This document shows positions 45,103 through 64,000 of a stretch of DNA of 64,000 nucleotides, in pieces. The notes under the pieces are model-generated. The model was not told the DNA's origin. It saw only the letters and a program-made list of their open reading frames with translations, and searched no databases. Position 1 is the first letter of the stretch. Every line of letters starts with the position of its first letter. The stretch is from an uncultured Saprospiraceae bacterium. Lineage in GTDB: Bacteria; Bacteroidota; Bacteroidia; Chitinophagales; Saprospiraceae. Both the position numbers and the translations under genes were made by a program. The DNA lies in contig CALSOU010000012.1 of NCBI GenBank assembly GCA_943788055.1, positions 62,001-126,000 of the forward strand, written 5' to 3'.

Positions 45103-48100
45103 ATGAGAATTTTACTAATATTTTTGGGAATGTTCAGCATAAATTTTATGCTAAATGGACAAGTGAATTGTAATGAGACACTCATGGTAGATGGAGACCC
45201 AACTACTTGCGTAGCTATTGATATGGATTTAGTCAGCTACGAAACGATTCTAGGTAGTTGTGTTCCAGAGGCTAGTAATCATAATGCATGGCTAGCCTTT
45301 ACCGCAGATGGTCCTGATATCGACATCATTAGCACACACGCATCAAATGCAAATGTACTCTTCACACTTGTCAGATTTACTGGCCAAGATTGTGATCCAG
45401 TAAAGTATGAAGAAATAGCTTGTGGAATAAATCAGATTAATGAAGTTGATATTCTGACCGTAGGAGAGCTTTATCACGTAATTGTGCATGTAGAAGATAA
45501 TGTAGGAGGAGACACTGAAGTATGCGTATATAATCCAGACAGTACACCAGCACCAGCAAATAATTTGCCTTGTGCAGCTATACAACTTGTTCCAGATAGC
45601 ACCTGCATTTCTGGAACCACGACATATGCTGAATCAGACGACAATCTATTGCATTGCGGACCTGAAATGCGAAATGAGGTTTGGTATAAATTTACTACTG
45701 GTGATTCACTTGTTTTTGGTGTGCAAGTATTTTTGCATAATATTAGTATGACTGGCGACTTCCGAGTGAAGCTTATAGAATTCGGTTTTCAAGACTGCAG
45801 TCAAGAATCAGTTATTCGACAGCAATATTGTGGAAGTGAATTTGGCTTAGCTTTAGAGTACGTTGCTTTGGAGCCAAATCATGAATATTATGTAGCTGTC
45901 GCCTCAGATGAGGAAACACAGGGTGATTTTGAGATTTGTCTAAAGCAAATGTATGCCGATCCCAATACAGATCCTTGTCAAGCGACGGAAATTTCACCAA
46001 ATCAGGAATGTATCACGTTTGACACATACTATAGCCTATTTGAGTATGACCTACCATCATGTGATTTTTCTAATCAAAAAATTTGGTACCAGTTTTATTC
46101 AGGTGAGCATCTTGATGATATAGACATTTCTCTATCTAAACTAGAAGATGATGAGAGTGTATTTATTGGCCTAGGTTATTTTCAGGGAAATTTCTGTGAA
46201 AATAACTTTGTTTGGGTCGACTCGTACTGTGGAAATGTGCAAGATGCATCTTTAGTTTATGATGATTTACTTCCGTTCCAAATCTATCATATTGTCATCG
46301 GTACCAATTTTGGTTTTACAGGTGAATTTGAACTTTGTGTTAATGGAGATTATAATTCACCATATACAAATGGTTCACCCTGTACCGCTTATCAGATTGA
46401 TGATTTTGCTGGTTGTGTTAGTGGGTCGAATATTTATGGACAGACGAATTTACAAGATACTTTTTGCTATGGAATTACCCCAATCACTGAGAATTGGTAT
46501 AAAGTACCACTGGAAAGATATGACCATAGTATTGATGTCGGCTATACCGCTATCAATACTATTCCTGTTCATCGAATTCAAATAGGGTATTTCGAAAATG
46601 GTTGTTTGGATTCTTTCCAAGTCCAAAGTGAATTTTGTGATATTCCACAAGAGTCAAGCCTGTCAGCAAGTTTTCCTGACTCAATAGAGTTTGCGTACAT
46701 AAATCTTGGACTACCAGCAAATCAGGAATACTTCTTCTCGCTTTGTATTAATCCACTCGATTTGTCACAGCTTTGTTTTGATGGTGATTTCTGTCAAACT
46801 GCATTAGATCAAGGTGAGATTGAGCTAGAATCTGCAAACTGTTGGGAAGCTTGTACATTTGGCGCAACTCGAGAAAATTCTACTAACAGCTTCACTTCTA
46901 GGTACCCTACTTCTTGGTATTCGTTTACTACTGGGGAGGAGGTGGAAATGCTAAAGTTAAATCTTGAGCAACCAACGTTTCCCAGCTTTTTCATAGGCCT
47001 TAAAAAAGCAGATGAATGCGACCGCGATACATTCGATATATTTCGTTATATTCAAATCACAGATTTATCAGAGTGGAGTCTAGGCGTTGATGCTAATTCA
47101 GAGTATTTGTTAGCAATCTGCGCGATCTCTGAACTAGGTGCGACTGCTGATATTTGTATTGAAGGACTTTCGTCAAATAGATGTCCTATAGATGATAAAT
47201 TGTCGGTTGTCAATACTTCTATGGGGTCTCCTTTTTTTGGACCTTTTCAAGAAGGAGAGCAGGTTAGTTTTTGCTATACTATAGAATCATTCGATGTAAT
47301 ATCTGAATTTAGTTGTCAATGGCTGCAAGGAATTGTTCCCACTTTTGGACATTCTTGGAATCAAATTTCTTTTGATTCTTTGGGTAAACCAATTTCTAGT
47401 TCCAACATAGTTTCTCTCAATAGTGAAGCTGAATGGGGTTGGAGAAATGATGTTCATTCAAAAATGGATAGTGATTATCGAAGATTATCTATGAGTAATC
47501 AAGGTCTCCAAATTTGTCACAGTGATCAATCAGAATGTGAAGGCGTAGGGTTACACGCAGGTGATGAATTGCCGGCTGGTTGGTATGCATGGAATTACAG
47601 CCAAGGTTTTATGCATCCAGATAGCACATATGGCGATGGTATATTTTGCGATCAAAATAATGGTCCTTGGAACGTTTGTTTCGACCTGTTAGTGGGAAAT
47701 CTCTCTGACGATGTTGATTTATCGGTAGATATCCATACTTTTTCGGATGGTGAAATTGGTTTAGGAGGTACTCCCGATACATCTTGTATGGCAGATTTAC
47801 CCTTGGTAAACTCATACTACATGCAGTGTGATCAAACTCCTTTAGATAGTTTGATGCAGATTTCAACTTGTTCTGGTAATACAACAACAATTAATCTTCC
47901 AGAAGATCAACTCTTCTTCTGGTTTTACATAGACAACCCACGAGTTCAAGGAGAAACCACAGGTTCTGGAACTGAACTTACGATTTCATTGTCGACAGAT
48001 GATTTAGCCGTTTCCACTGCACAGTATTTTGTACAAGGATATAGCAGTAATGGTTGTCATCTTGCCAATTATGAAATTCTGATAGATGTTTATCCAGCGT

Positions 48101-49980
48101 TGGATATTCCGAGGCCGGATTTATTTACAATATGTCAACGTGATAGTATTTCGATGCAAGATATTCTGCCTCTTCAAGACTATATAATTGGGGATTTTTA
48201 TGTGGATTGGGATAGTCCTATACTCGAAGATTTACCAAATGCTTTCTGGGCAGGTAATACTGATACGATTATACCATATCAAGTCATTTCAGCAGCTGGG
48301 TGTTATTTTCAAGACACGATAGCAATACACGTTGAAGATGTAATTGTCGAGGGTGAATTTTTTCCTTATACGGTATGTCGCGACGACCAGCTAAATCTGC
48401 AAGATGTGATTGACTTGAATAGCCTAATTGAAGACCCATTTACAGTTGATTGGGACTATGGTAATCTAGAAGATGTTCCGAATCCCGACACCTCCTTTAT
48501 GGCTTCGACCGAAATTCCTTTCGTCCTAACTGGGGAGAATGGTTGTCAATACGTCGATGTTCTAGAGATTACAGTTCCATTTATTGACGTAATAGTTTTG
48601 GGCAAAAATCGCTATTGTTCAACAGACACGGTTTCTATTTCGGCAGGCTACAGTTTCGATCTTCCACATGAGAAATTTTGGATATATCCAAACGGCGATA
48701 CACTTTATTCAGCGGGAATTGCAAGGCCAGCTGAATTATTTCAGGATGGGACAAATTACCTTGAATTTCATTTGCTTACAGAAGATGGATGCCCTTTTTA
48801 TGACTATGATACAATCGAGATTTACAGAGTGCCAGAATTTACTTTTAACCAAGATACTTTTGGCCTAGGCGTATGTTCATATGATAGTTTATTATTGGAA
48901 GTAGAATTGAGCACAGATATATATGATCCCGTTTGGTCTACACCAGAAGGCACTATTGTATCAGAGTCTTATTTTATTTCTACGCCTGGAATTTATACAA
49001 TATTATCAGGATATCAAGATACTACTTTAGATTGCAGTAATACAGAAACTTTCGATCTTAGTCACTATCCTGAAGTAGATACCGATCTAACTTATGACGA
49101 AATTGTTTGTGAAGGAGATTCTTCCGTAGTTGCTTTCAGTAATTCTAATAATATTTTTGCTTGGTCTACTGGGAATTTTAGTTCAGATGAAAAGCTTCCT
49201 GCAGGCGAATATCAAGTCACGGTTAGTAATCCTGACGGATGTAAAGACTTTTTTGAGATATCAGTAGATAGTCAAGCTTTGCCGAATCCTACCTTTAGTT
49301 TCGTAGATATGATCTGCGATGGCGACTCAGTTTGGATTGATACTGCAGAAGATGATTCTTACAACTATCTATGGACGGATTCATCTGACAGTTCTGCTTA
49401 TTTGAGTTACGGTGGAGTAGAAAATGTTTACGTTACCGATAATCTAGGATGCCTCGACAGCTTTAGTTTTGAAATTGAAGTGATAGAGGTTCCAGAAGTA
49501 GACTTTAGTTACAGTACCACACAAGATACTTTGTTTCTCTTTGATAATTCGACAGATATCGGAGATTGCCAGTGGATGATCAACGATGATTTACTAGGTA
49601 TCGCAGGTGATACAGTTCTCATTTTACCCGAAGGCGATTACATAGTTTCACTTACTTGCGATAATCAAGGTTGTACTGATTTTCAGTTAGAAAATATTAC
49701 TGTCGAGGTTGTTATTGTTATCTCCAACAAAGAATTTGAGGATATGCCTTGGCAATTATTCCCAAATCCAAATTCGGGATTATTTGACGTTGAATTTGAA
49801 AGTGAAAGATTTATTGAAGAAGTGGAAGTTTTTGACTTGCAAGGAAGATTACACTACTTCCAAAAGGTTGAAAGTAGGAAGAAACAACTTGAATTTGATG
49901 CACAACTTGTTGCGGGAACATATTTTCTTAGAGTTCAGAGCTCAAAAGGAAGTGAAGTTAAAGTTTTTGTAGTTCGCTAA
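45103..49980 (+). CDS. Large secreted protein with N-terminal repeats and T9SS type A domain
   Basis: A 1625-residue exported protein with signal peptide (1-19, ...FMLNG). From about 20 to 690 it has about five loose repeats of 120-140 residues, each opening near a Cys and holding an aromatic W-Y-F core with a TG-rich strand (EVWYKFTTGDSL, KIWYQFYSGEHL, TSWYSFTTGEEV), a pattern like pre-peptidase or galactose-binding beta-sandwiches. The middle has domains with FCQRD/VCRDD-type cysteine turns resembling Ig-like SprB neighbours (950-1500). The last 80 residues (LFPNPNSGLFDVEF ... GTYFLRVQSSKGSEVKVFVV) are a type A sorting domain. No enzyme motif was found. Confidence 0.82.
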   Translation: MRILLIFLGMFSINFMLNGQVNCNETLMVDGDPTTCVAIDMDLVSYETILGSCVPEASNHNAWLAFTADGPDIDIISTHASNANVLFTLVRFTGQDCDPVKYEEIACGINQINEVDILTVGELYHVIVHVEDNVGGDTEVCVYNPDSTPAPANNLPCAAIQLVPDSTCISGTTTYAESDDNLLHCGPEMRNEVWYKFTTGDSLVFGVQVFLHNISMTGDFRVKLIEFGFQDCSQESVIRQQYCGSEFGLALEYVALEPNHEYYVAVASDEETQGDFEICLKQMYADPNTDPCQATEISPNQECITFDTYYSLFEYDLPSCDFSNQKIWYQFYSGEHLDDIDISLSKLEDDESVFIGLGYFQGNFCENNFVWVDSYCGNVQDASLVYDDLLPFQIYHIVIGTNFGFTGEFELCVNGDYNSPYTNGSPCTAYQIDDFAGCVSGSNIYGQTNLQDTFCYGITPITENWYKVPLERYDHSIDVGYTAINTIPVHRIQIGYFENGCLDSFQVQSEFCDIPQESSLSASFPDSIEFAYINLGLPANQEYFFSLCINPLDLSQLCFDGDFCQTALDQGEIELESANCWEACTFGATRENSTNSFTSRYPTSWYSFTTGEEVEMLKLNLEQPTFPSFFIGLKKADECDRDTFDIFRYIQITDLSEWSLGVDANSEYLLAICAISELGATADICIEGLSSNRCPIDDKLSVVNTSMGSPFFGPFQEGEQVSFCYTIESFDVISEFSCQWLQGIVPTFGHSWNQISFDSLGKPISSSNIVSLNSEAEWGWRNDVHSKMDSDYRRLSMSNQGLQICHSDQSECEGVGLHAGDELPAGWYAWNYSQGFMHPDSTYGDGIFCDQNNGPWNVCFDLLVGNLSDDVDLSVDIHTFSDGEIGLGGTPDTSCMADLPLVNSYYMQCDQTPLDSLMQISTCSGNTTTINLPEDQLFFWFYIDNPRVQGETTGSGTELTISLSTDDLAVSTAQYFVQGYSSNGCHLANYEILIDVYPALDIPRPDLFTICQRDSISMQDILPLQDYIIGDFYVDWDSPILEDLPNAFWAGNTDTIIPYQVISAAGCYFQDTIAIHVEDVIVEGEFFPYTVCRDDQLNLQDVIDLNSLIEDPFTVDWDYGNLEDVPNPDTSFMASTEIPFVLTGENGCQYVDVLEITVPFIDVIVLGKNRYCSTDTVSISAGYSFDLPHEKFWIYPNGDTLYSAGIARPAELFQDGTNYLEFHLLTEDGCPFYDYDTIEIYRVPEFTFNQDTFGLGVCSYDSLLLEVELSTDIYDPVWSTPEGTIVSESYFISTPGIYTILSGYQDTTLDCSNTETFDLSHYPEVDTDLTYDEIVCEGDSSVVAFSNSNNIFAWSTGNFSSDEKLPAGEYQVTVSNPDGCKDFFEISVDSQALPNPTFSFVDMICDGDSVWIDTAEDDSYNYLWTDSSDSSAYLSYGGVENVYVTDNLGCLDSFSFEIEVIEVPEVDFSYSTTQDTLFLFDNSTDIGDCQWMINDDLLGIAGDTVLILPEGDYIVSLTCDNQGCTDFQLENITVEVVIVISNKEFEDMPWQLFPNPNSGLFDVEFESERFIEEVEVFDLQGRLHYFQKVESRKKQLEFDAQLVAGTYFLRVQSSKGSEVKVFVVR

Positions 49981-50681: not shown

Positions 50682-53600
50682 ATGTCCAAGTATTGTCGGA
50701 TATTGCTTGTAATTACTTTAGCTTTTATGGTAAGTGACGTATTTGCGCAAGTACCATATTACCTTATTGATGGACACAACTGCTCTTCATCAGGGACCTC
50801 TCCAGAATGGACTAGCCCTCCTATAGATGATCCTACTAATGATTCTGCAGCAGCAGGGACCGATTTGGTGAATTATTGGTTTGACTATGATCCTGACTCA
50901 GATAATTTTTGCTTTGCATTCGAAAGATTTTCCGCACAGACTAGTGGGCCAAGTGCTACATACGTAATTTTCTTTGATCTTGATTGTGATGCTAATACTG
51001 GTTACGATGGTTTTGGTCAAGGAGGAGATGTTGCCATTGGATTAGAATGGAAGGTTAATGGGCCATGGGATGTCATTAAGTTTACGTTCGGTCAAAATAA
51101 TCCTGAAATTTTGGGTCAGGCATTTGTTGGTCAATCCGACTGTAATGATCCAGCTACTCAGGGAAGATTCGCTGAGTTTTGTTTTAATCTTTCGGATATC
51201 ATCGCTTCAGGATATGATCCGTGCTCATGTAGTGCTATTTCAACTCCAGGCGTAATCACTTTAGCAGGAGGTAGTATAAATTCTGAACCAAAGGACATTT
51301 TAGAAGGTCTAGTTGATGTTGAAATCGAAGTAAACAATCCTCCAGTTGCAGACGGTTCAGTTACGCCAGATATAATTTGTTTGGGGACACCTATCAATTA
51401 CGATGCTTCTTTATCTACAGATGATTTACCTGCAAATGATGTGTTATCTTATGTTTGGGATTTCGATTACAATGGAAGTACTATTAATGAAATGAGCACT
51501 TCCGTTTCAGGAACTTATGTGTTTAATACAGGTGGGTCTTATGATGTTTTACTTGAAATAACTGATTCATATGGTTGCCCAGATACCTTGGTTTTTCCTG
51601 TTGACGTCTTTGAAGCACCCATCGCGGTGTTAGATTTAGAATTTGACGCTTGCGATTTTACGATGTTTTATGATGGTTCTCAATCGATTGAGAACAACTT
51701 GCCGCAAAACCTTGAGTATTTTTGGGATTTTGGTGATGGTCAGACTTCCAATCAACAAATAGGAACCGTTACTTATGCTAGTTGTGGGACTTATACAGTT
51801 ACCCTAACGGTAACTGACCCAGATGCCCCCACTGAATGTAATACTGATTTTGTAAGCCAAGTAGTTACATTCGATGATAGTCCACCAACTCTGAGCTGCC
51901 CAACTCTAGTAACTGGAAGTTGCAGTGTTGATTCAATTGCACCTTACACAACTATAGAAGAATTTATTGATGCAGGCGGAACTGCAACTGATAATTGTCC
52001 ATTAAATTCAATTCAGTTGCTTGTAGAGATATTTGATAACAATACATGCGGAGGATCACTGCTTAGAATTTATCAGGTTACTGACTTTTGTGGTCAAACG
52101 GCGACTTGTGAGCAAAGTATTGAGGTAAATGATGATATTGCGCCTACGTTTGAGTGTCCCCCGAATGCTACTACAAATTGCAGTATAGTAGATTTTCCAG
52201 CGTACGGTAGTTTGGCAGATTTCATTGCAGCAGGAGGTTCAGTTAGTGATAATTGTGATATTAATCCTGCAAGTTTTACAATAGTATCAGAACTGTCAGA
52301 CGGGAGTTCTTGTCCCGAAATTATCTCAAGAGTTTATCAAATTGCTGATATATGTGGAAATACCGCAGAGTGCACACAGATTGTTGAGGTAAATGATGTG
52401 CTACCTCCTGACATGATTGCACCAGCTCCTATTTCTGCTATATGCGATTTCAATGAAGTTTCAGCTTACAGTACTATAGAAGATTTTCTTACTGCCGGTG
52501 GATCCATAACTGACAATTGTCAAATAGATTCTTCAAGTTTTGTATTTGTAATGGATACTACTGACAATAACACTTGTCCTGAGATAGTCCAAATGATATA
52601 TTCAGTCGCGGATGTTTGCGGAAATGTTAGCACGGTAGCTCAATTGATTGAAGTCAATGATCAGATATTTCCAATGATTTCTTGTCCAAATATATATGTT
52701 ACAGATTGTAATATTAGTCAGATTCCCGCCATTACAACTTTCGTTCAATTTCAAAATGAAGGAGGAACGGCCTCAGATAATTGTCAAATTGATGAAACAA
52801 CATTCACGCTACAGAGTGAAACGAGCGACGGAAATAGCTGTCCACAGACAATAACGAGGGTATACTATGTAGAAGATCTATGTGGCAATGGCGTAACATG
52901 TGAACAGATTATAACGGTTGATGATGATATAGATCCAATGATGAGTTGTCCAGGAGACCTTGTGGCGGTGTGCGACATTTCGGAGCAGCCGGTATATTCT
53001 GATTACAGTTCATTTCTGTCAGCAGGAGGTACAGCATCGGATAATTGCCAAATTGATGAAGCTACGTTTATGCTTCAAAGTGAAGTAAGTGATGGAAATA
53101 GCTGTCCAGAAACGGTAATACGGGTATACTATGTGGAAGATTTATGTGGAAATGGAGCAACGTGTGAGCAAGTGATCACAATTAATGATGAAATTGATCC
53201 GATAATGAGTTGTCCTGGTGATTTGACAGCTATATGCGATATCACAGAACAACCAGCGTATAATGATTTTGCTTCCTTTGTATCAGCAGGAGGCTCTGCA
53301 TCGGACAACTGCGCCATTAACGAAAGTAGTTTTACACTACAGAGTGAGATCAGTGATGGCAATAGTTGTCCTGAAACAATCACACGCACCTACTCTGTAG
53401 AAGATTTATGTGGCAATGGGGTGACATGTGAGCAAGTAATAGTAGTAAACGATACAGAGGCACCAATTTTTGTTGGGCCAGGAGATTTGACGGGGATATG
53501 TGCACTAACAGAACATCCTGTGTATACAGATTACAGTGCCTTTATTTCAGCAGGTGGTTCAGCATCTGATAACTGTACATTGGTAGAATCATCTTTTGGG

Positions 53601-56600
53601 TTGCAGAGTGAATTGAGTGATGGCAATAGTTGCCCAGAGATAGTGACGAGGATATATGAGATAAGTGATCAATGTGGCAACGTGTCGACATTTGAACAAA
53701 TCATAACAATAGATGACCAGATATTCCCTGAGATCAATTGTCCAGGAGATTTGACAGTAGTATGTGACATCAGTGAAGTGATGCCGTATATAGACTTAGC
53801 AAGTTTTCAAGCAGCAGGAGGAACGGTTTCGGATAACTGTGATATAGTAGTTTTGTCATTCGGCTTACAAAGTGAAACGAGTGACGCAAATAGCTGTCCA
53901 GAGACAGTGACGCGCATATATGAGATATCGGATGCATGTGGGAATATATCAACCTGTACTCAATTGGTGATAGTTGATGATGAAGAAGACCCAGTTATGA
54001 GTTGTCCAGATGAATTGACCGCGGTATGCGATGCATCGGAACAACCCGCCTACGCAGATTTTGCATCCTTTGTTGGAGCAGGAGGTTCTGCCTCAGATAA
54101 TTGTCAAATTGATGAAACAACATTCACGCTACAGAGTGAAACGAGCGACGGAAATAGCTGTCCACAGACAATAACGAGGGTATACTATGTAGAAGATTTA
54201 TGTGGCAATGGGGTGACATGTGAGCAGATAGTCACAGTAGCTGATGATATGGATCCTGTTATGAGTTGTCCGGGTGATCTAGAGGCAGTATGTGATATTG
54301 GAGAGCAACCGGCCTATGCCGATTATGCATCGTTTATATCAGCAGGAGGCTCCGCATCAGACAATTGCCAAATAGATGAGTCTTCCTTCATGCTTCAAAG
54401 TGAAGTGAGTGATGGCAATAGTTGTCCAGAAACGGTAATACGGATATACTATGTAGCAGATTTATGTGGCAATGGGGTGACATGTGAGCAAGTGATTACG
54501 ATTGATGATGAAATTGATCCGATGATGAGTTGTCCGAGTGAATTGACAGCGGTGTGTGATATATCGGAACAGCCAGCGTACGCAGATTTTGCATCTTTTG
54601 TAGGAGCAGGAGGGTCAGCTTCAGATAACTGCGCCATTAACGAAAGTAGTTTTACACTACAGAGTGAGATCAGTGATGGTAATAGTTGTCCTGAAACAAT
54701 CACACGCACCTACTATGTAGAAGATTTATGTGGCAATCAGGTGACATGTGAGCAAGTAATAGTAGTAAACGATACAGAGGCACCAATTTTTGTTGGGCCA
54801 GGAGATTTGACGGGGATATGTGCACTAACAGAACATCCTGTGTATACAGATTACAGTGCCTTTATTTCAGCAGGTGGTTCAGCATCTGATAACTGTACAT
54901 TGGTAGAATCATCTTTTGGGTTGCAGAGTGAATTGAGTGATGGCAATAGTTGCCCAGAGATAGTGACGAGGATATATGAGATAAGTGATCAATGTGGCAA
55001 CGTGTCGACATTTGAACAAATCATAACAATAGATGACCAGATATTCCCTGAGATCAATTGTCCAGGAGATTTGACAGTGGTATGTGACATCAGTGAAGTA
55101 ATGCCGTATATAGACTTAGCAAGTTTTCAAGCAGCAGGAGGAACGGTTTCAGATAACTGTGATGTAGTAGTTTCGTCATTCGGATTACAAAGTGAAACGA
55201 GTGATGCAAATAGCTGTCCTGAGACAGTGACCCGCATATATGAGATATCGGATGCATGTGGGAATATATCAACCTGTACTCAATTGGTGATAGTTGATGA
55301 TGAAGAAGACCCAGTTATGAGTTGTCCGGATGAATTGACCGCGGTATGCGATGCATCGGAACAACCCGCCTACGCAGATTTTGCATCCTTTGTTGGAGCA
55401 GGAGGCTCCGCGTCGGATAATTGTGCAATTAATGAATCGAGTTTTGTGCTTCAGAGTGAGCAGAGTGATGGGAATACTTGTCCAGAGATAATAACAAGAA
55501 TATACTATGTAGAAGATTTATGTGGCAATGGGGTGACATGTGAGCAGATAGTCACAGTAGCTGATGATATGGATCCTGTTATGAGTTGTCCGGGTGATCT
55601 AGAGGCAGTATGTGATATTGGAGAGCAACCGGCCTATGCCGATTATGCATCGTTTATATCAGCAGGAGGCTCCGCATCAGACAATTGCCAAATAGATGAG
55701 TCTTCCTTCATGCTTCAAAGTGAAGTGAGTGATGGCAATAGTTGTCCAGAAACGGTAATACGGATATACTATGTAGCAGATTTATGTGGCAATGGGGTGA
55801 CATGTGAGCAAGTGATTACGATTGATGATGAAATTGATCCGATGATGAGTTGTCCGAGTGAATTGACAGCGGTGTGTGATATATCGGAACAGCCAGCGTA
55901 CGCAGATTTTGCATCTTTTGTAGGAGCAGGAGGGTCAGCTTCAGATAACTGCGCCATTAACGAAAGTAGTTTTACACTACAGAGTGAGATCAGTGATGGT
56001 AATAGTTGTCCTGAAACAATCACACGCACCTACTCTGTAGAAGATTTATGTGGCAATGGGGTGACATGTGAGCAAGTAATAGTAGTAAACGATACAGAGG
56101 CACCAATTTTTGTTGGGCCAGGAGATTTGACGGGGATATGTGCACTAACAGAACATCCTGTGTATACAGATTACAGTGCCTTTATTTCAGCAGGTGGTTC
56201 AGCATCTGATAACTGTACATTGGTAGAATCATCTTTTGGGTTGCAGAGTGAATTGAGTGATGGCAATAGTTGCCCAGAGATAGTGACGAGGATATATGAG
56301 ATAAGTGATCAATGTGGCAACGTGTCGACATTTGAACAAATCATAACAATAGATGACCAGATATTCCCTGAGATCAATTGTCCAGGAGATTTGACAGTGG
56401 TATGTGACATCAGTGAAGTGATGCCGTATATAGACTTAGCAAGTTTTCAAGCAGCAGGAGGAACGGTTTCGGATAACTGTGATATAGTAGTTTTGTCATT
56501 CGGCTTACAAAGTGAAACGAGTGACGCAAATAGCTGTCCAGAGACAGTGACGCGCATATATGAGATATCGGATGCATGTGGGAATATATCAACCTGTACT

Positions 56601-59600
56601 CAATTGGTGATAGTTGATGATGAAGAAGACCCAGTTATGAGTTGTCCAGATGAATTGACCGCGGTATGCGATGCATCGGAACAACCCGCCTACGCAGATT
56701 TTGCATCCTTTGTTGGAGCAGGAGGCTCCGCCTCGGATAATTGTGCAAATTGATGAATCGACTTTCGCGCTTCAGAGTGAGCACGAGCGACGGGAATAGC
56801 TTGTCCACAGACAATAACGAGGGTATACTATGTAGAAGATTTATGTGGCAATGGGGTGACATGTGAGCAGATAGTCACAGTAGCTGATGATATGGATCCT
56901 GTTATGAGTTGTCCGGGTGATCTAGAGGCAGTATGTGATATTGGAGAGCAACCGGCCTATGCCGATTATGCATCGTTTATATCAGCAGGAGGCTCCGCAT
57001 CAGACAATTGCCAAATAGATGAGTCTTCCTTCATGCTTCAAAGTGAAGTGAGTGATGGCAATAGTTGTCCAGAAACGGTAATACGGATATACTATGTAGC
57101 AGATTTATGTGGCAATGGGGTGACATGTGAGCAAGTGATTACGATTGATGATGAAATTGATCCGATGATGAGTTGTCCGAGTGAATTGACAGCGGTGTGT
57201 GATATATCGGAACAGCCAGCGTACGCAGATTTTGCATCTTTTGTAGGAGCAGGAGGGTCAGCTTCAGATAACTGCGCCATTAACGAAAGTAGTTTTACAC
57301 TACAGAGTGAGATCAGTGATGGTAATAGTTGTCCTGAAACAATCACACGCACCTACTATGTAGAAGATTTATGTGGCAATCAGGTGACATGTGAGCAGCT
57401 TATTGTTATCAATGACATTGAGGCACCAATAATAGATGGACCTAATGAAGTCCTTGGTACTTGTACAATAGGTGAATTTCCTCCATATCAAGATTATGCC
57501 GATTTTATTGCTGATGGTGGCGACGCAACTGATAATTGTACATTAGTAGAATCTTCTTTTGCACTACAAAGTGAAAGTAGCGACGGCAATCTCTGCCCCG
57601 AAATATTTACTAGAATTTATCAAATTTCAGATCAATGTGGTAATGTTTCGACTTTTGAACAAGAAATCATAATTGATGATGATGAAGATCCCATCCTTTT
57701 GTGTCCAAATAATGAGTCAGCAGTTTGTGATGCAAGTGAAATTCCAGTATTTACTTCTTTTGATAGTTTCCAAGCAGCTGGTGGAAGTGCAAGTGATAAC
57801 TGTGGCTTAGATATTTCAAGTTTTACATTGCAAAGCGAAGTCAGTAATGGAAATACTTGTCCTGAAATTGTTTTGAGAACCTACTTCATATCAGATAATT
57901 GCGGCAATGGAGCTACTTGTGTCCAGGAGATAATAGTAAGTGATGATATATTGCCAGAGATGACTTGTCCTCCCAATCTATCAGCAATTTGCGACGCAAG
58001 TGAACATCCAGCTTATACAAGTTTGGCACAGTTTATTGGAGCAGGTGGGACAGCGTCGGATAATTGTGGAATTAATGAAAGTTCTTTCTTTTTGCAAAGT
58101 CAAGAGAGCGATGGGAATACATGTCCTGAAACCATCACTAGAACTTATTATATAGAGGATTTATGCGGAAATCCGACGAGTTGTACTCAAACTGTGGTCA
58201 TCAACGATGATGTTAATCCAGAAATGACTTGTCCAGGAGATCTGACAGGAGTATGCTCTATCGATGAAATCCCAGCATATAAGAACTATCAAGACTTTAT
58301 AAATAATGGCGGTAGTGCTTCAGATAATTGTGAAATTAATCAGTTTTCATTTGACTTGCTTAGCGAAGTGTCCGATGGTAACTCATGTCCTGAAACTATT
58401 ACGCGAACATACTATATTGAGGATCTTTGCGGAAATAGTGCCTCTTGTACTCAAGTGATAGTAATCAAAGATGATGAAGCTCCATCTTTTGAGTCTATTC
58501 CTGATCTTACCTTCAATTGTTCTATCGATGAATATCCCCCATTTACTTCCCTAGATGAGTACATAAATGCTGGTTTTAACGTGGATGACAATTGTCAGAT
58601 TGATCCTGCAAGCTTTACTTTAGTAAGCGAAAATGCTGATGGCGCTTCATGTCCTGAAACTTATACGAGAATTTACTCCGTTGCAGATCTTTGTGGAAAT
58701 CAAAGTACTGTGTCACAAAATATATTAGTAAGTGACATAATTCCGCCTACAATTAATGCACCTGAAGGGGCAACTTTTTCCTGTCCTGAAGAGCTTGAGG
58801 CTCCTTTTATTTCATTCGATGAATTTATAAGTGCGGGTGGCGATGCTGATGACAACTGCTCCATAAACCCAACCACTTTTGCATTAATCAGTGAATCAAA
58901 TGACGGGTTAACATGCCCTACGACAATTACCAGAATCTATGTTATTTATGATTACTGTGGAAATTCCGCAACAACAGAGCAATTGATCACGATTAATGAT
59001 AAAATAAGTCCAGAGATGTTCTGTCCTCCTGAAAGGACGGGAATTTGTAGTATTTCCGAAGTTTCAGCTTATCAGAATTATGCACAATTTCTGGCAGCTG
59101 GAGGATCGGCTGAGGATAACTGTGGTATAAATGAATCTACTTTTACATTGATTAATCAATCCTCAAATGGAGAAAAGTGTCCTGAAGTAATAACTAGGAC
59201 TTATCAGATTGCAGACAACTGCGGCAATACCGCTACTTGTACTGTAGAAGTTACCATTTTAGACGATATAGCTCCAGTAATTACTTGTCCAAGTGACCTA
59301 ACTGGAATCTGTTCGCCAAATGAGCAGCCAGCCTACCTAAATTTGACGCAGTTCATAAACGCAGGTGGTTCAGTTTCGGATAATTGCGAAATTCTCAACG
59401 GAAGTTTTCAATTAATAGAAGAGACGTCTGATGGAAATACATGTCCAGAGATAATAACTAGAGTATATCAGATAAGTGATATTTGTGGTAACACTGCTTC
59501 ATGTTCGCAGAATGTAACAATTAATGATGAAGTACCACCAATTTTCACTTCAAATCCTGATATCACAACTAGCTGTTTACTGGGAGATATTTCACCTTTC

Positions 59601-62600
59601 GAGAGCATCAATGATTACAAGTCGTACGGAGGCAATATAAGCGATAATTGCGGATTAGATCCAAATTCTTTCATGATGCTTACTGAAGAAAGTGATGGAA
59701 ATACATGTCCAGAAACTATTACAAGAATTTATATTGTCAGTGATTACTGTGGAAATACAGCTACAATTGACCATAATATCACGATTGATGACTTAATTAG
59801 CCCCATTTTGACCTGCCCACCAACTGAATATGGAATATGCAGTAGCGATGAAGCACCCGTATACTTAGATTTAGAGAGTTTTATACAAGCTGGTGGTACT
59901 GCAAGCGATAATTGCTCCTTAGATGAATCAAGTTTCACACTATTAGCTGAAGATACCAATGGATCAACGTGCCCAGAAATATTGACTAGGACTTACTCAA
60001 TTAAGGACCAATGTGGAAACGAAGCAATATGTACACAAATGATTATAGTCAATGATCTTGTACCACCAATTTTTACAAATACAAATATTCTTGAGGGGCA
60101 ATGCTCTATTGACGATTTTCCTCCTTATGAAGATATTCAGGATTTCATTGATCAAGGTGGAATCTTAGAAGATAACTGTGGTATTGATCCATTTTCATTT
60201 TCTTTGGATCAAGAACTCGAAGCACCTGATTCTTGTCCAAAATTGTATGGACGTGTTTATAGTGTGTCAGATCTTTGTGGAAACATTACTACATTCACGC
60301 AAAGTATACTCATTGATGATACTATTGCTCCTGAGATGAATTGTCCAAACACGGCCACAGGGGTTTGTAGTTCAGAGGAGATAGATATTCTTTCCACGTA
60401 TGAAGAATATCTCGAAGCAGGAGGTACAGTTGATGAAAACTGTGTATTAGATGAATCAAGTTTCGCATACGATGGTGACATCATTGTATCAAATACATGT
60501 CCACAAATCATTAATAGGATCTATAGTATCTCTGATGTTTGCGGTAATATCGGAACCTGCGTGCAGGAAATTGTTGTAAATGATGAAATTGCCCCAGAAA
60601 TAAATAGTCCAAATAATAATCATGGAGATTGCGATGTTGCGGAATATCCTCCCTACACAAGTTTCGAAGATTGGGTGGCAGATGGTGGAGGAGCCGATGA
60701 TAATTGTGCTGTAGATCCGAATACTTTTGCATTGGTGCAAGAGTCTACCTCTAGTTCAACATGTCCTCTTATAGTAACTAGAATTTACGTAATTGCTGAT
60801 TATTGCGGGAATACAGCAACTAGCAATCACACAGTTACCATCAATGATGACACCCCACCTAGTATTACTTGTCCACCTGATATCAATGGAATTTGTTCTA
60901 TTGATGAAAATGAAGCTGCGACAACACTTGATCAGTTTATACTATTCGGTGGTTCTGTATCAGATAACTGTTCTATTGACCCAACAAGTTTTTTATTAGT
61001 TGAAGAAATAGCATCACAAACTGCTTGTCCTACCATTATAGAAAGGATCTATCAGATTTCTGATATGTGTGGAAATACCGCTACTTGTTCTCAGACGATT
61101 GTTGCCAATGATGAAGAGGCACCTCAGATTGTGCTTTGTCCAACTGATATCACGCTCCAGTGTGATATGGAAACGAACCAAGCGGCCATTGATTCATGGT
61201 TATCGAATTTTGAAGTAATAGATAATTGTACGATTCAGTCAATCGAAAATAATTATCAAGTACCAAATGGTCCTTGTGAAGGTGTTGGTGTCACCGTTGT
61301 AGAGTTTACGGCTATTGATGAATGTAACAATGTTACTTCTTGCACAGCCTCATTAACAATAATAGATACGATCCCGCCTATTGCTGACGATCTAGTGGAT
61401 ATGATTATTGATTCTTTAAGTGAACTACCTCCGATCGACGTAACTGTGGTAACGGGCGTTTCAGACTTGTGTGATGCATCACCTACAATTATTTGGAGCT
61501 CTGATGAATTTGAAACAAATAGTTCATGCAGTGGTAACAGTATGACTATTACAAGAACCTATCAAGTAATTGACTGTAGCGGAAATATCACAGAAGTTGT
61601 CCAGACTTTTATTATGGACGATGATCCTATACTAATTGCAGTTGAGAAGGTAAATGTGACTTGCTTTGGTGGAGATGACGGTAGTATTGATATTTCGGTT
61701 ACTGGAGGTTTACCACCATATACATACGATTGGAGTAATGATATCTATGATGGAGAGGTCTCTTTAGAAAACCTTGTTGCGGGCACCTATAGTGTAACAG
61801 TAACGGATGATAATAATTGTACGCAAGAGAAAGTCATTCAAATCACCCAGCCTACCCAGGATATTGATGTCAGTATTTCACCGGCAGCTCCAATTATTTG
61901 CGAAGGGTCTAGTATTACTCTGTCGGCAAATATAGCTTTTGGAAACGCTCCTTTTGATTATGAATGGATATTTGGTAATAGTTCAGTTGGGACAACAACT
62001 CTTGTCGCATCAGATCCTGGTATTTACACTGTAATTATAACAGATGTGACAGGTTGTTCTGCAACAGATGAAATAGAACTACAAGTCATTCCAAACGTTG
62101 TTATAGATCCGATTGGCCCATTATCAGGATGTGAGTATGTTGTTCTTGATTCAATAACTGGAAGTAATTTGTCAGGTAGCCAAGCCTATTTCACGCAGTC
62201 AAATGGGAATGGAAGCATGTTTAATCATGGAGATACGATATGGTCTGCAACCACATTATATGTGTATGATGCAACAGGAACGACTCCAAACTGTACGGAT
62301 GAGGTTGAAGTAGAAATTCAATTGAATGAAGGACCAAGTATAAATAATCCGGGAGATCAATTTGTTTGCGAGAGTTACTTTCTACCAGCAATAAATGGAA
62401 CGAATTTATCTCAAGACGTGGCGTATTACACCCTTCCAAATGGACAAGGAAATGTTTTACAAGAAGGTGATGAAATTACCGAGAATTCTACGATATATAT
62501 TTATGATCCAGGGGTAGACTGTGCGGCTCAGGAATTCTTTACAATTACGATAATAGTCAGGCCAGAAATTGATCCAATTGACGATGTTATAGCATGTGAT

Positions 62601-64000
62601 AGTTTTATATTACCTATAATCACAGGACAAAATTTAACAGGTAATGAAATGTATTACTCTGGGCCGAATGGTTCAGGAACTGCTTTCAGCGCTGGCACAG
62701 AAATTACGAACTCTATTGATTTATATATTTTTGATGGAGGGACTTCATGTAACGATGAAGAGTTTGTATCTATAGTGATCCATGACACACCAATTTTGAC
62801 GGATCCTTCCGATATTTTGGTCTGTAATTATTATATCTTACCTATCATACAAGGTTCAAACCTAACTGGGTCTGAGGGCTACTTTACGGAGTCAAATGGG
62901 GCTGGTGTGCAATATTTTGCTGGAGATACCATTTTCGAAGACTTAACACTATTTATCTATGATATTAATGAGAATTGTATTGCAGAAGTTGACGTTGCTA
63001 TAAGTATTGTAGAGACACCAATTTTAGAACCACTTGATGATGTTGTGACTTGCGATTTCTATGTCCTGCCGGAAATTATGGGTGATAACTTGACTGGAAA
63101 TGAGGGATATTTTAATGCTCCATCTGGACTAGGAACAGCTTTTCAACCTGGAGATACAATCTTCTCGACGATAATACTTTATTTGTTTGATCAAGCTGGA
63201 ACGTGTACCGATCAAGATCAATTTACTGTCACTGTTGGAGGAGCTCCAGATATATTTCCTCCTGCGCCTATCACTGCATGTGGATATGCAGTACTACCTG
63301 AAATTCTAGGTGTAAACCTAGGTGGTAATGCAGCATATTTTACGGAACCTTTAGGTGGAGGAACGGTCTATTTTTCAGGAGATACTGTTATCTCTAGTTC
63401 TCAGCTTTACATCTATATTGAAGCGGGTAGTTGCGCTGATGAAGAATTAATCGATATCACGATTCTACCTGAACCACTTCTAGATGAACCAGCAGATGTA
63501 AGTGCTTGTGATGAGTATATTTTGCTAGAAATTACTGGATCCGAGTTGACTGGTAATGAAGCATATTATACAGGGATTGAAGGTAGTGGAATTAGTTTGC
63601 AACCTGGCGATACAATTACTTCTTCACTATTGTTATATATCTACGATGCGAACACATTATGTTCAAATCAAGTTGATATGATGATTAATATTTCTCCTAC
63701 TCCAATATTAGATGATATAGCAAATGTCGAATCCTGCGAATCTTATGTGCTTCCAGAGATTTCTGGAAGCTTTCTAAACACGGCGAAGTATTTTTCTTCA
63801 GCAGACGGTCAAGGAGATATATATTTGCCAGGTGATATAATTACATCTTCACAGACACTTTTTGTCTATGATATTAATAATGGCTGTAGTGACGAAATTA
63901 GTTTCGATATAATAATTCTTGAAACTCCACAACTCAATGATATTGAAGATGTTATAGTGTGTGATGAATTTATTTTGCCAGAAATAACAGGAACCAATTT
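50682..64000 (+). CDS. Giant HYR-like repeat secreted protein, 3' end beyond window; one probable assembly-derived frame break
   Basis: The gene starts at the ATG at 50682 (signal peptide 1-22, ...VSDVFAQ) and is open in one frame to the window end, except for in-frame TGAs at 56751-56753 and 56778-56780 caused by three extra bases that together restore the frame. Order: a unique N-terminal domain (23-205), two PKD-like domains (about 205-400, YVWDFDYNG and YFWDFGDGQ), 35 HYR-like units of 88 residues (51885-61121), a divergent HYR-like unit, a second such region (to about 61630), an SprB-type repeat (about 61650-61850), an Ig-like domain, and nine 76-residue repeats from about 62090. The rest, presumably including a sorting domain, lies outside. 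At least 4,430 codons. Likely a cell-surface adhesin or gliding protein; no catalytic domain was seen. Confidence 0.85.
52785..57390 (+). repeat. Higher-order repeat: 1320 bp (five units), about 3.5 near-identical copies
   Basis: The same 5-unit order recurs with a period of 1320 bases: copies begin near 52785, 54105, 55425 and 56745 (the last one partial and 3 bases longer). Long stretches are identical between copies, for example 54449-54709 versus 55769-56029 and 57092-57352. Copies 1 and 3 share variants that copy 2 lacks in one unit (DIVVLSF versus DVVVSSF), so sequence exchange between copies has happened. Confidence 0.92.
56742..56806 (+). other. Frame-disrupting segment: superposition of two repeat variants (probable consensus error)
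   Basis: Compared with the homologous positions at 54104 (variant A, QIDETTF) and 55424 (variant B, AINESSF), this segment has three extra single bases, in TGTGCAAATT, GAGCACGAGC and AGCTTGTCC. Each extra base is the one present in only A or only B when the two are aligned with gaps, and every substituted column matches A or B. The net change is +3, so the frame is the same on both sides. Confidence 0.8.
62091..64000 (+). repeat. Second array: 76-residue Ig-like repeats, at least nine
   Basis: Each unit has C-x-x-Y-x-LP-x-I-x-G, then NLTGN, AYYT, a G-x-G turn, GDTI, an LYIYD strand and a final C followed by a TP linker. The leading Cys codon falls at 62130, 62367, 62595, 62823, 63051, 63279, 63507, 63735 and 63960, i.e. 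mostly 228 bases apart. The last unit is cut by the window edge. Divergence between units is high, unlike the 1320-bp array. Confidence 0.9.

What the first reader, a model, noticed from the sequence alone, without database searches (positions are those of the whole stretch)
51885..61121. First and sixth cysteines of the 88-residue unit appear and vanish together in all 35 units
Each unit can hold six cysteines. I read the first (in the x-CP start) and last (in TCxQ after CGN) in every unit. In 25 units both are present; in 10 (units 3, 7, 12, 17, 22, 26, 27, 30, 32, 34) both are missing, replaced by different residues (G, A, S, N, T at the first; F, V, T, I, S at the last). None has only one. 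Several of these losses look independent. This predicts a Cys1-Cys6 disulfide, leaving Cys2 to Cys5 to pair among themselves, and shows that units come in 4-Cys and 6-Cys types.
Basis: partly seen in the sequence, partly recalled or inferred. Interest (0 to 1): 0.75.

Follow-up and report, generated by a model that had tools for sequence, protein, structure and literature searches.

The report
Paired cysteines in bacterial adhesin repeats
A giant surface protein of a probable Saprospiraceae bacterium is built from repeated immunoglobulin-like units in which the first and last cysteines are almost always kept or lost together, here and in relatives, which is strong indirect evidence that they form an optional disulfide stapling the start of each unit to its end.

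Summary
Of 35 units (51885-61121), 25 hold both Cys1 and Cys6, 10 hold neither, none is mixed. It holds far beyond the window: in 258 non-redundant homologous units 205 have both, 44 neither, 9 one (phi 0.89; next best of the 15 cysteine pairs 0.31); about five of those nine are real exceptions. Cys1-Cys6 is the strongest of 3,486 residue couplings (z 20; next 8.7), flanked by 3-75, as for parallel first and last strands. Cys6 of one unit does not track Cys1 of the next (phi -0.1), against an inter-unit bond and hitch-hiking along the DNA. On a weakly supported unit tree, 16 of 19 changes coincide. AlphaFold2 folds a 6-Cys/4-Cys pair with high confidence. Units are a divergent, helix-containing variant of Pfam HYR_4C in a T9SS-type giant protein. 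I infer an optional first-to-last-strand disulfide that makes 6-Cys units hard to stretch and leaves 4-Cys units extensible. The disulfide itself is not shown. Corrections: 5-Cys units are common in relatives, and unit 19 is broken by three one-base insertions that look like assembly errors.

The parts
50682..64000 (+). Giant surface-protein gene; runs on past the window to about window-equivalent 69839 (CHU_C T9SS type B end). Read as one gene of about 6385 codons, interrupted in the assembly at 56751-56855
   Evidence: signal-peptide-like start MSKYCRILLVITLAFMVSDVFAQ by eye
51669..51836 (+). PKD domain before the array
   Evidence: PF18911, residues 330-385
51885..61121 (+). Array of 35 HYR-like units of 88 residues (unit 1: 86; unit 19: broken)
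   Evidence: PF23237 HYR_4C
52407..52670 (+). 4-Cys unit 3 (A/V at the Cys1/Cys6 positions)
53199..53462 (+). 6-Cys unit 6 (Cys1 codon 53211-53213, Cys6 codon 53427-53429), folded here
53463..53726 (+). 4-Cys unit 7 (G/F), folded here next to unit 6; identical to units 12 and 17
54783..55046 (+). 4-Cys unit 12 (G/F)
56103..56366 (+). 4-Cys unit 17 (G/F)
56631..56897 (+). Unit 19: mosaic of units 9 and 14 with three one-base insertions, giving three in-frame stops; probable consensus error in a near-identical repeat
57426..57689 (+). 4-Cys unit 22 (G/F)
58482..58745 (+). 4-Cys unit 26 (S/V)
58746..59009 (+). 4-Cys unit 27 (A/T)
59538..59801 (+). 4-Cys unit 30 (S/I); best match in congener G144 is A/V
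60066..60329 (+). 4-Cys unit 32 (N/F); best match in G144 is G/F
60594..60857 (+). 4-Cys unit 34 (S/S); best match in G144 is S/S
61122..61376 (+). Unit 36, divergent HYR-like unit, Cys1 (shifted by one) and Cys6 both present
61377..61640 (+). Unit 37, degenerate HYR-like unit, both absent
61644..61739 (+). SprB repeat after the array
   Evidence: PF13573, residues 1597-1628 of the second ORF

Best explanation
Each unit is an Ig/cadherin-like beta sandwich. Cys1 follows the first short strand (residues 2-4) and Cys6 (residue 77) lies in the last strand (74-83); the two strands run in parallel next to each other and Cys1-Cys6 form a disulfide that ties the two ends of the domain together. The pair is optional: one cysteine alone is disfavoured (a lone thiol in a secreted, oxidising setting, with no gain in stability), so both are lost or regained together, while the fold persists on the core cysteines Cys2-Cys5. 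In a tandem tether held at both ends, a first-to-last-strand bond would route tension around the fold (about 15 residues outside the ring), whereas a 4-Cys unit can release at least about 43 residues (arithmetic, taking one of the possible core pairings), so the 6-Cys/4-Cys mix would set how far the protein can stretch. Shown: co-occurrence, coupling, same-unit and not next-unit linkage, a confident model containing both types. Inferred: the disulfide, its redox state, and (least certain, see novel case and third rival) the mechanical role. The confidence given is for the Cys1-Cys6 disulfide.
For: Window 25/10/0. 258 non-redundant homologous units: 205 both, 44 neither, 4 Cys1 only, 5 Cys6 only; phi 0.89, all other cysteine pairs at most 0.31. 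Apparent exceptions read one by one: several have Cys1 out of register. Held-out loci (Mangrovibacterium, Brumimicrobium, Bacteroidales MAGs): 18 both, 26 neither, no real exception. DCA: 5-77 rank 1 of 3,486, z 20; flanking 3-75 z 5.1; the neighbourhood stays in the top 2.5% without the Cys pair. Crude reconstruction without any cysteine column puts 5-77 closest of the 15 Cys pairs, median 7.0 A. Cys6(n) vs Cys1(n+1) phi -0.1. Tree: 19 changes each, 16 coincide; other pairs 0-4. AF2 mean pLDDT 96.4 over a 6-Cys and a 4-Cys unit with the same secondary structure. An exported DsbA-like protein with a CSWC motif is encoded. Precedent: first-to-last-strand isopeptide/ester bonds, and an engineered disulfide in the place of the ester, block stretching of adhesin stalk domains (PMC8382745).
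Against: No coordinates were available, so the distance is inferred from couplings; the reconstruction is crude, and with only columns 5 and 77 left out it gives 10 A (22nd percentile). The unit tree is weakly supported: only 3 independent pairs on well-supported branches, two agreeing and none opposing. True Cys1-only units exist (L106, L107, L110, L035) and one Cys6-only unit (L056), so a lone cysteine is tolerated. The cost of a lone cysteine does not hold for the core: 32 of 258 units lack only Cys5. No VKOR was found. The mechanical role rests on analogy alone.
Confidence: 0.9

Rival explanations
1. Cys1 and Cys6 bond to the neighbouring unit (Cys6 of one unit to Cys1 of the next), forming a chain of inter-unit staples.
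For: The two positions are only 16 residues apart across the linker, closer in sequence than Cys1 and Cys6 of one unit.
Against: Cys6(n) and Cys1(n+1) do not covary: window 15 both, 9 and 9 with one, 1 neither, so 18 of 34 neighbour pairs would leave a cysteine unpaired; all arrays 157/37/31/3, phi -0.1.
Confidence: 0.02
2. Shared ancestry only: 4-Cys units are one old lineage of units that lost both cysteines once and spread by duplication; no physical contact is needed.
For: Units 7, 12 and 17 are identical copies; 4-Cys units of the C-terminal part keep their order in congener G144.
Against: Most 4-Cys kinds in the window are under 60% identical in DNA to any other unit and carry different replacement pairs; 16 coincident changes on the unit tree against 0-4 for other Cys pairs; G144 units at L054 665 (P/V) and 841 (E/V) are closest to 6-Cys units 24 and 25 of the window; 16 loci hold both types. 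Linkage along the DNA would favour Cys6(n)-Cys1(n+1), which is not seen.
Confidence: 0.05
3. The pair forms a disulfide, but its presence or absence is neutral drift in stability with no mechanical tuning: the pair is lost wherever other contacts suffice.
For: Replacement residues are mixed, mostly small at position 5 and V or F at 77; the 4-Cys unit is modelled as confidently as the 6-Cys unit; no clear spacing rule for 4-Cys units (3 adjacent pairs seen where about 6 are expected, too few to judge).
Against: The order 4,6,4,6,4,6 of units 30-35 is kept in G144 although matching units are only 51-61% identical.
Confidence: 0.6

Closest known systems
Pfam PF23237 HYR_4C (HYR-like domain with 4 cysteines)
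   Same: Cys2-Cys5 core including DNC and CGN motifs; the two parts of the array score 165 and 128 bits
   Different: Single units score 16.7-24.2 bits, under the cut-off of 27, and usually match only over their C-terminal 50 residues; they have a predicted helix between Cys2 and Cys3 and mostly the extra Cys1-Cys6 pair
Pfam PF02494 HYR domain
   Same: A classical HYR unit from a relative (L135) carries Cys at both the Cys1 and Cys6 places
   Different: It lacks Cys4 and Cys5 and the helix; window units do not reach HYR even at E 10
Gram-positive pilin and adhesin Ig-like domains with a first-to-last-strand isopeptide or ester bond (Spy0128, Cpe0147)
   Same: Would work alike if the inference holds: a covalent bond between first and last strands of stalk domains (PMC8382745)
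   Different: Disulfide instead of isopeptide or ester; optional from unit to unit; no sequence relationship shown
Cadherin-like and Ig-like tandem adhesin domains (SraP, Moritella chitinase, E-cadherin, Rib)
   Same: Best fold matches (E 8.7e-5 to about 2e-3)
   Different: TM-scores of the two-unit model 0.26-0.53; fold-level resemblance only

Membership tests
HYR_4C (PF23237) | Profile match above the curated cut-off (27 bits) | tested here: inconclusive
   Whole array far above it, single units 16.7-24.2 bits, below it
HYR_4C (PF23237) | Four core cysteines including DNC and CGN | tested here: met
   Cys2-Cys5 present in all 35 units (unit 19 by its aligned parts). That these are the four of the Pfam name is inferred
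HYR (PF02494) | Profile match | tested here: not met
   No hit for single units up to E 10
T9SS type B substrates | CHU_C C-terminal sorting domain | tested here: met
   PF13585 at the C-terminus, 46.9 bits; link to the array's first half depends on reading through the break at unit 19
Covalently stapled (first-to-last strand) adhesin stalk domains | Bond between first and last strands | tested here: inconclusive
   Couplings 5-77 and 3-75, strands 2-4 and 74-83; bond not observed
Covalently stapled (first-to-last strand) adhesin stalk domains | Inextensible under force | not testable with these tools
   Needs single-molecule force spectroscopy

The most novel reading that the evidence does not exclude
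The array is a mechanically graded tether: 6-Cys units are disulfide-locked between first and last strands and 4-Cys units are the extensible links, so the number and order of the two types, changed by unit turnover, sets the reach and force response of the surface protein.
Probability: 0.25. Interest if true: 0.65.

Novelty: new variant of a known kind. Interest (0 to 1): 0.45.

Why it matters
It gives a clean sequence-only prediction of a disulfide in a large domain family (matches in 376 of 398 genomes of the bacterium's family) for which no sequence relative with a solved structure was found. If the bond bridges first and last strands, Bacteroidota would use an optional disulfide where Gram-positive adhesins use isopeptide or ester bonds, and tandem arrays with naturally mixed locked and unlocked units would be a ready test system for the link between adhesin mechanics and evolution.

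Tried and rejected
A first motif-anchored count took Cys1 for Cys2 and gave false exceptions; redone. The count flagged 18 units of L068 as Cys6 only because its repeat is longer; those read do have Cys1. The search for related loci with the alignment found no usable stretch; a single unit worked. No solved relative by sequence: best E 0.72 for the units and 0.026 over 32 residues for a classical HYR unit. The viral structure search gave only general Ig-like matches. The core pairing of Cys2-Cys5 could not be settled: couplings favour Cys3 near Cys5 (99th percentile) and three units lose Cys3 and Cys5 together, but seven lose Cys4 and Cys5 together and 32 lose Cys5 alone. Avoidance of neighbouring 4-Cys units was considered; counts are too small. 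Model coordinates were not in the Python box.

Full report
What is there. The gene starts at 50682 and, read through one break, ends at about window-equivalent 69839, beyond the window. It begins with a signal-peptide-like stretch and a PKD domain, holds 35 units of 88 residues (51885-61121), two further divergent units, an SprB repeat and a long run of 2-Cys Ig_7-like units, and ends with a CHU_C type IX secretion domain. The genome is a 3.0 Mb assembly in 13 contigs. It is probably Saprospiraceae: two contigs of a same-family genome (G045, 17,527 and 17,768 bases) match in length records titled Saprospiraceae bacterium IP29b_bin.78.

The observation. Cutting at the conserved proline gives 35 units; 25 have Cys1 and Cys6, 10 have neither, none is mixed. 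The nominal p value of 5e-9 overstates the evidence, because the array grew by copying a five-unit block: units 7, 12 and 17 are identical in DNA. About seven separate 4-Cys kinds remain (3; 7/12/17/22; 26; 27; 30; 32; 34).

Homologues. A profile of the window units was searched in genomes of the same family, order and phylum: 376 of 398 family genomes match, and 37 of 395 drawn from the phylum. From the fetched loci 258 units remain at 40 bits or more and below 80% identity. Cys1/Cys6: 205 both, 44 neither, 4 and 5 with one, phi 0.89. The other 14 cysteine pairs range from -0.13 to 0.31. Read one by one, four Cys1-only units (L106, L107, L110, which look alike, and L035) and one Cys6-only unit (L056, first of its array) are real; the others have Cys1 out of register. 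Weaker, more distant HYR-like units show the same rule: 92 both, 246 neither, 29 apparent singles, of which 18 come from one array (L068) with a longer repeat that does hold Cys1 in the units read. Held-out loci found later (Mangrovibacterium marinum, Brumimicrobium, Bacteroidales MAGs) gave 18 both and 26 neither; the three apparent singles all have Cys1 a few residues out of register.

Why contact is the best reading. (a) Cys6 of one unit and Cys1 of the next lie only 16 residues apart, yet do not covary (phi -0.1), so hitch-hiking along the DNA and inter-unit bonds are both excluded as the rule. (b) On a tree of 229 units built without the two columns, Cys1 and Cys6 each change 19 times and 16 changes coincide; other pairs coincide 0-4 times. 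The tree is weakly supported: on its well-supported branches only three independent pairs remain, two agreeing and none opposing. (c) Mean-field coupling analysis of 330 units ranks 5-77 first of 3,486 pairs (z 20, next 8.7), with 3-75 (z 5.1) beside it, the pattern of parallel strands. The neighbourhood remains in the top 2.5% when the cysteine pair is left out. A crude reconstruction without any cysteine column puts 5-77 closest of all cysteine pairs (median 7 A); with only columns 5 and 77 left out it is 10 A, so this line is weak. (d) AlphaFold2 on units 6 (6-Cys) and 7 (4-Cys) with 58 aligned sequences gives mean pLDDT 96.4 and the same strands in both (2-4, 9-11, helix 24-29, 33-35, 40-52, 59-69, 74-83). 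Coordinates could not be read, so the distance itself is not measured. Best fold matches are tandem Ig-like and cadherin-like adhesin domains.

Core cysteines. Cys2-Cys5 behave as a separate group, but not as two strict pairs: 32 of 258 units lack only Cys5, 7 only Cys3, 7 only Cys4 (at the alignment positions), 7 lack Cys4 and Cys5, 3 lack Cys3 and Cys5. Couplings place Cys3 near Cys5, and strand geometry puts Cys4 and Cys5 at opposite ends of strand 59-69, which favours Cys3-Cys5 and Cys2-Cys4; this is inference.

Likely working. An exported protein with a DsbA-like CSWC motif is encoded in the genome, so oxidation is plausible; VKOR was not found. A bond between residues 5 and 77 leaves about 15 residues outside the ring; a 4-Cys unit with core bonds 13-57 and 38-71 would release at least about 43 residues. 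First-to-last-strand isopeptide and ester bonds, and an engineered disulfide in the same place, make adhesin stalk domains resist extension (PMC8382745). By analogy, 6-Cys units would be locked and 4-Cys units extensible. The order 4,6,4,6,4,6 of units 30-35 is kept in congener G144 (units 30, 32, 33, 34 and 35 by best match at 51-61% identity, unit 31 by position), with different replacement residues (S/I vs A/V, N/F vs G/F), which suggests, but does not prove, that the types are maintained. Neutral loss of a dispensable bond explains the data at least as well.

Classification. The whole array matches HYR_4C strongly, but each unit tested alone falls below the family cut-off and mostly matches over its C-terminal half. 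The units are best called a helix-containing, optionally 6-Cys variant of HYR_4C; they do not match HYR itself. No paper in the library mentions HYR_4C.

The break at unit 19. Unit 19 (56631-56897) mixes the variants of units 9 and 14 base by base, and its three one-base insertions sit next to sites where these two differ. This looks like a consensus error in near-identical repeats, so I treat the two ORFs as one gene; raw reads would decide.

Noticed in passing
window 56751-56855: Three one-base insertions in unit 19 at sites where units 9 and 14 differ, summing to +3 and giving three in-frame stops; probable assembly consensus blend.
   Followed up: yes
window 53463-57425: Five-unit (1320 bp) super-repeat present about three times with up to 100% DNA identity between units, a sign of recent array growth or conversion.
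   Followed up: partly
window 62082-64000 and L010 1-2300: Run of Ig_7-like repeats of about 88 residues with two cysteines each (CDxYVLPEI ... CxDE) after the HYR-like array; the pairing of these cysteines was not examined.
   Followed up: no
L059, L140, L046, L154, L155: Relatives in which many units have five cysteines (Cys5 lost, Cys1 and Cys6 kept), implying a free thiol or another bond.
   Followed up: partly
window units, residues 36, 69, 73, 85: Conserved D36, D69, N73 and D85 near the unit ends, several coupled to each other and to P1; recalls inter-domain calcium sites of cadherins.
   Followed up: no
L193 (Brumimicrobium): One protein mixes 6-type units lacking the DNC motif with 4-core-Cys HYR_4C units without Cys1 and Cys6.
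   Followed up: partly
window 45103-49980: Neighbouring 1625-residue protein with a type A T9SS sorting domain and many cysteines.
   Followed up: no
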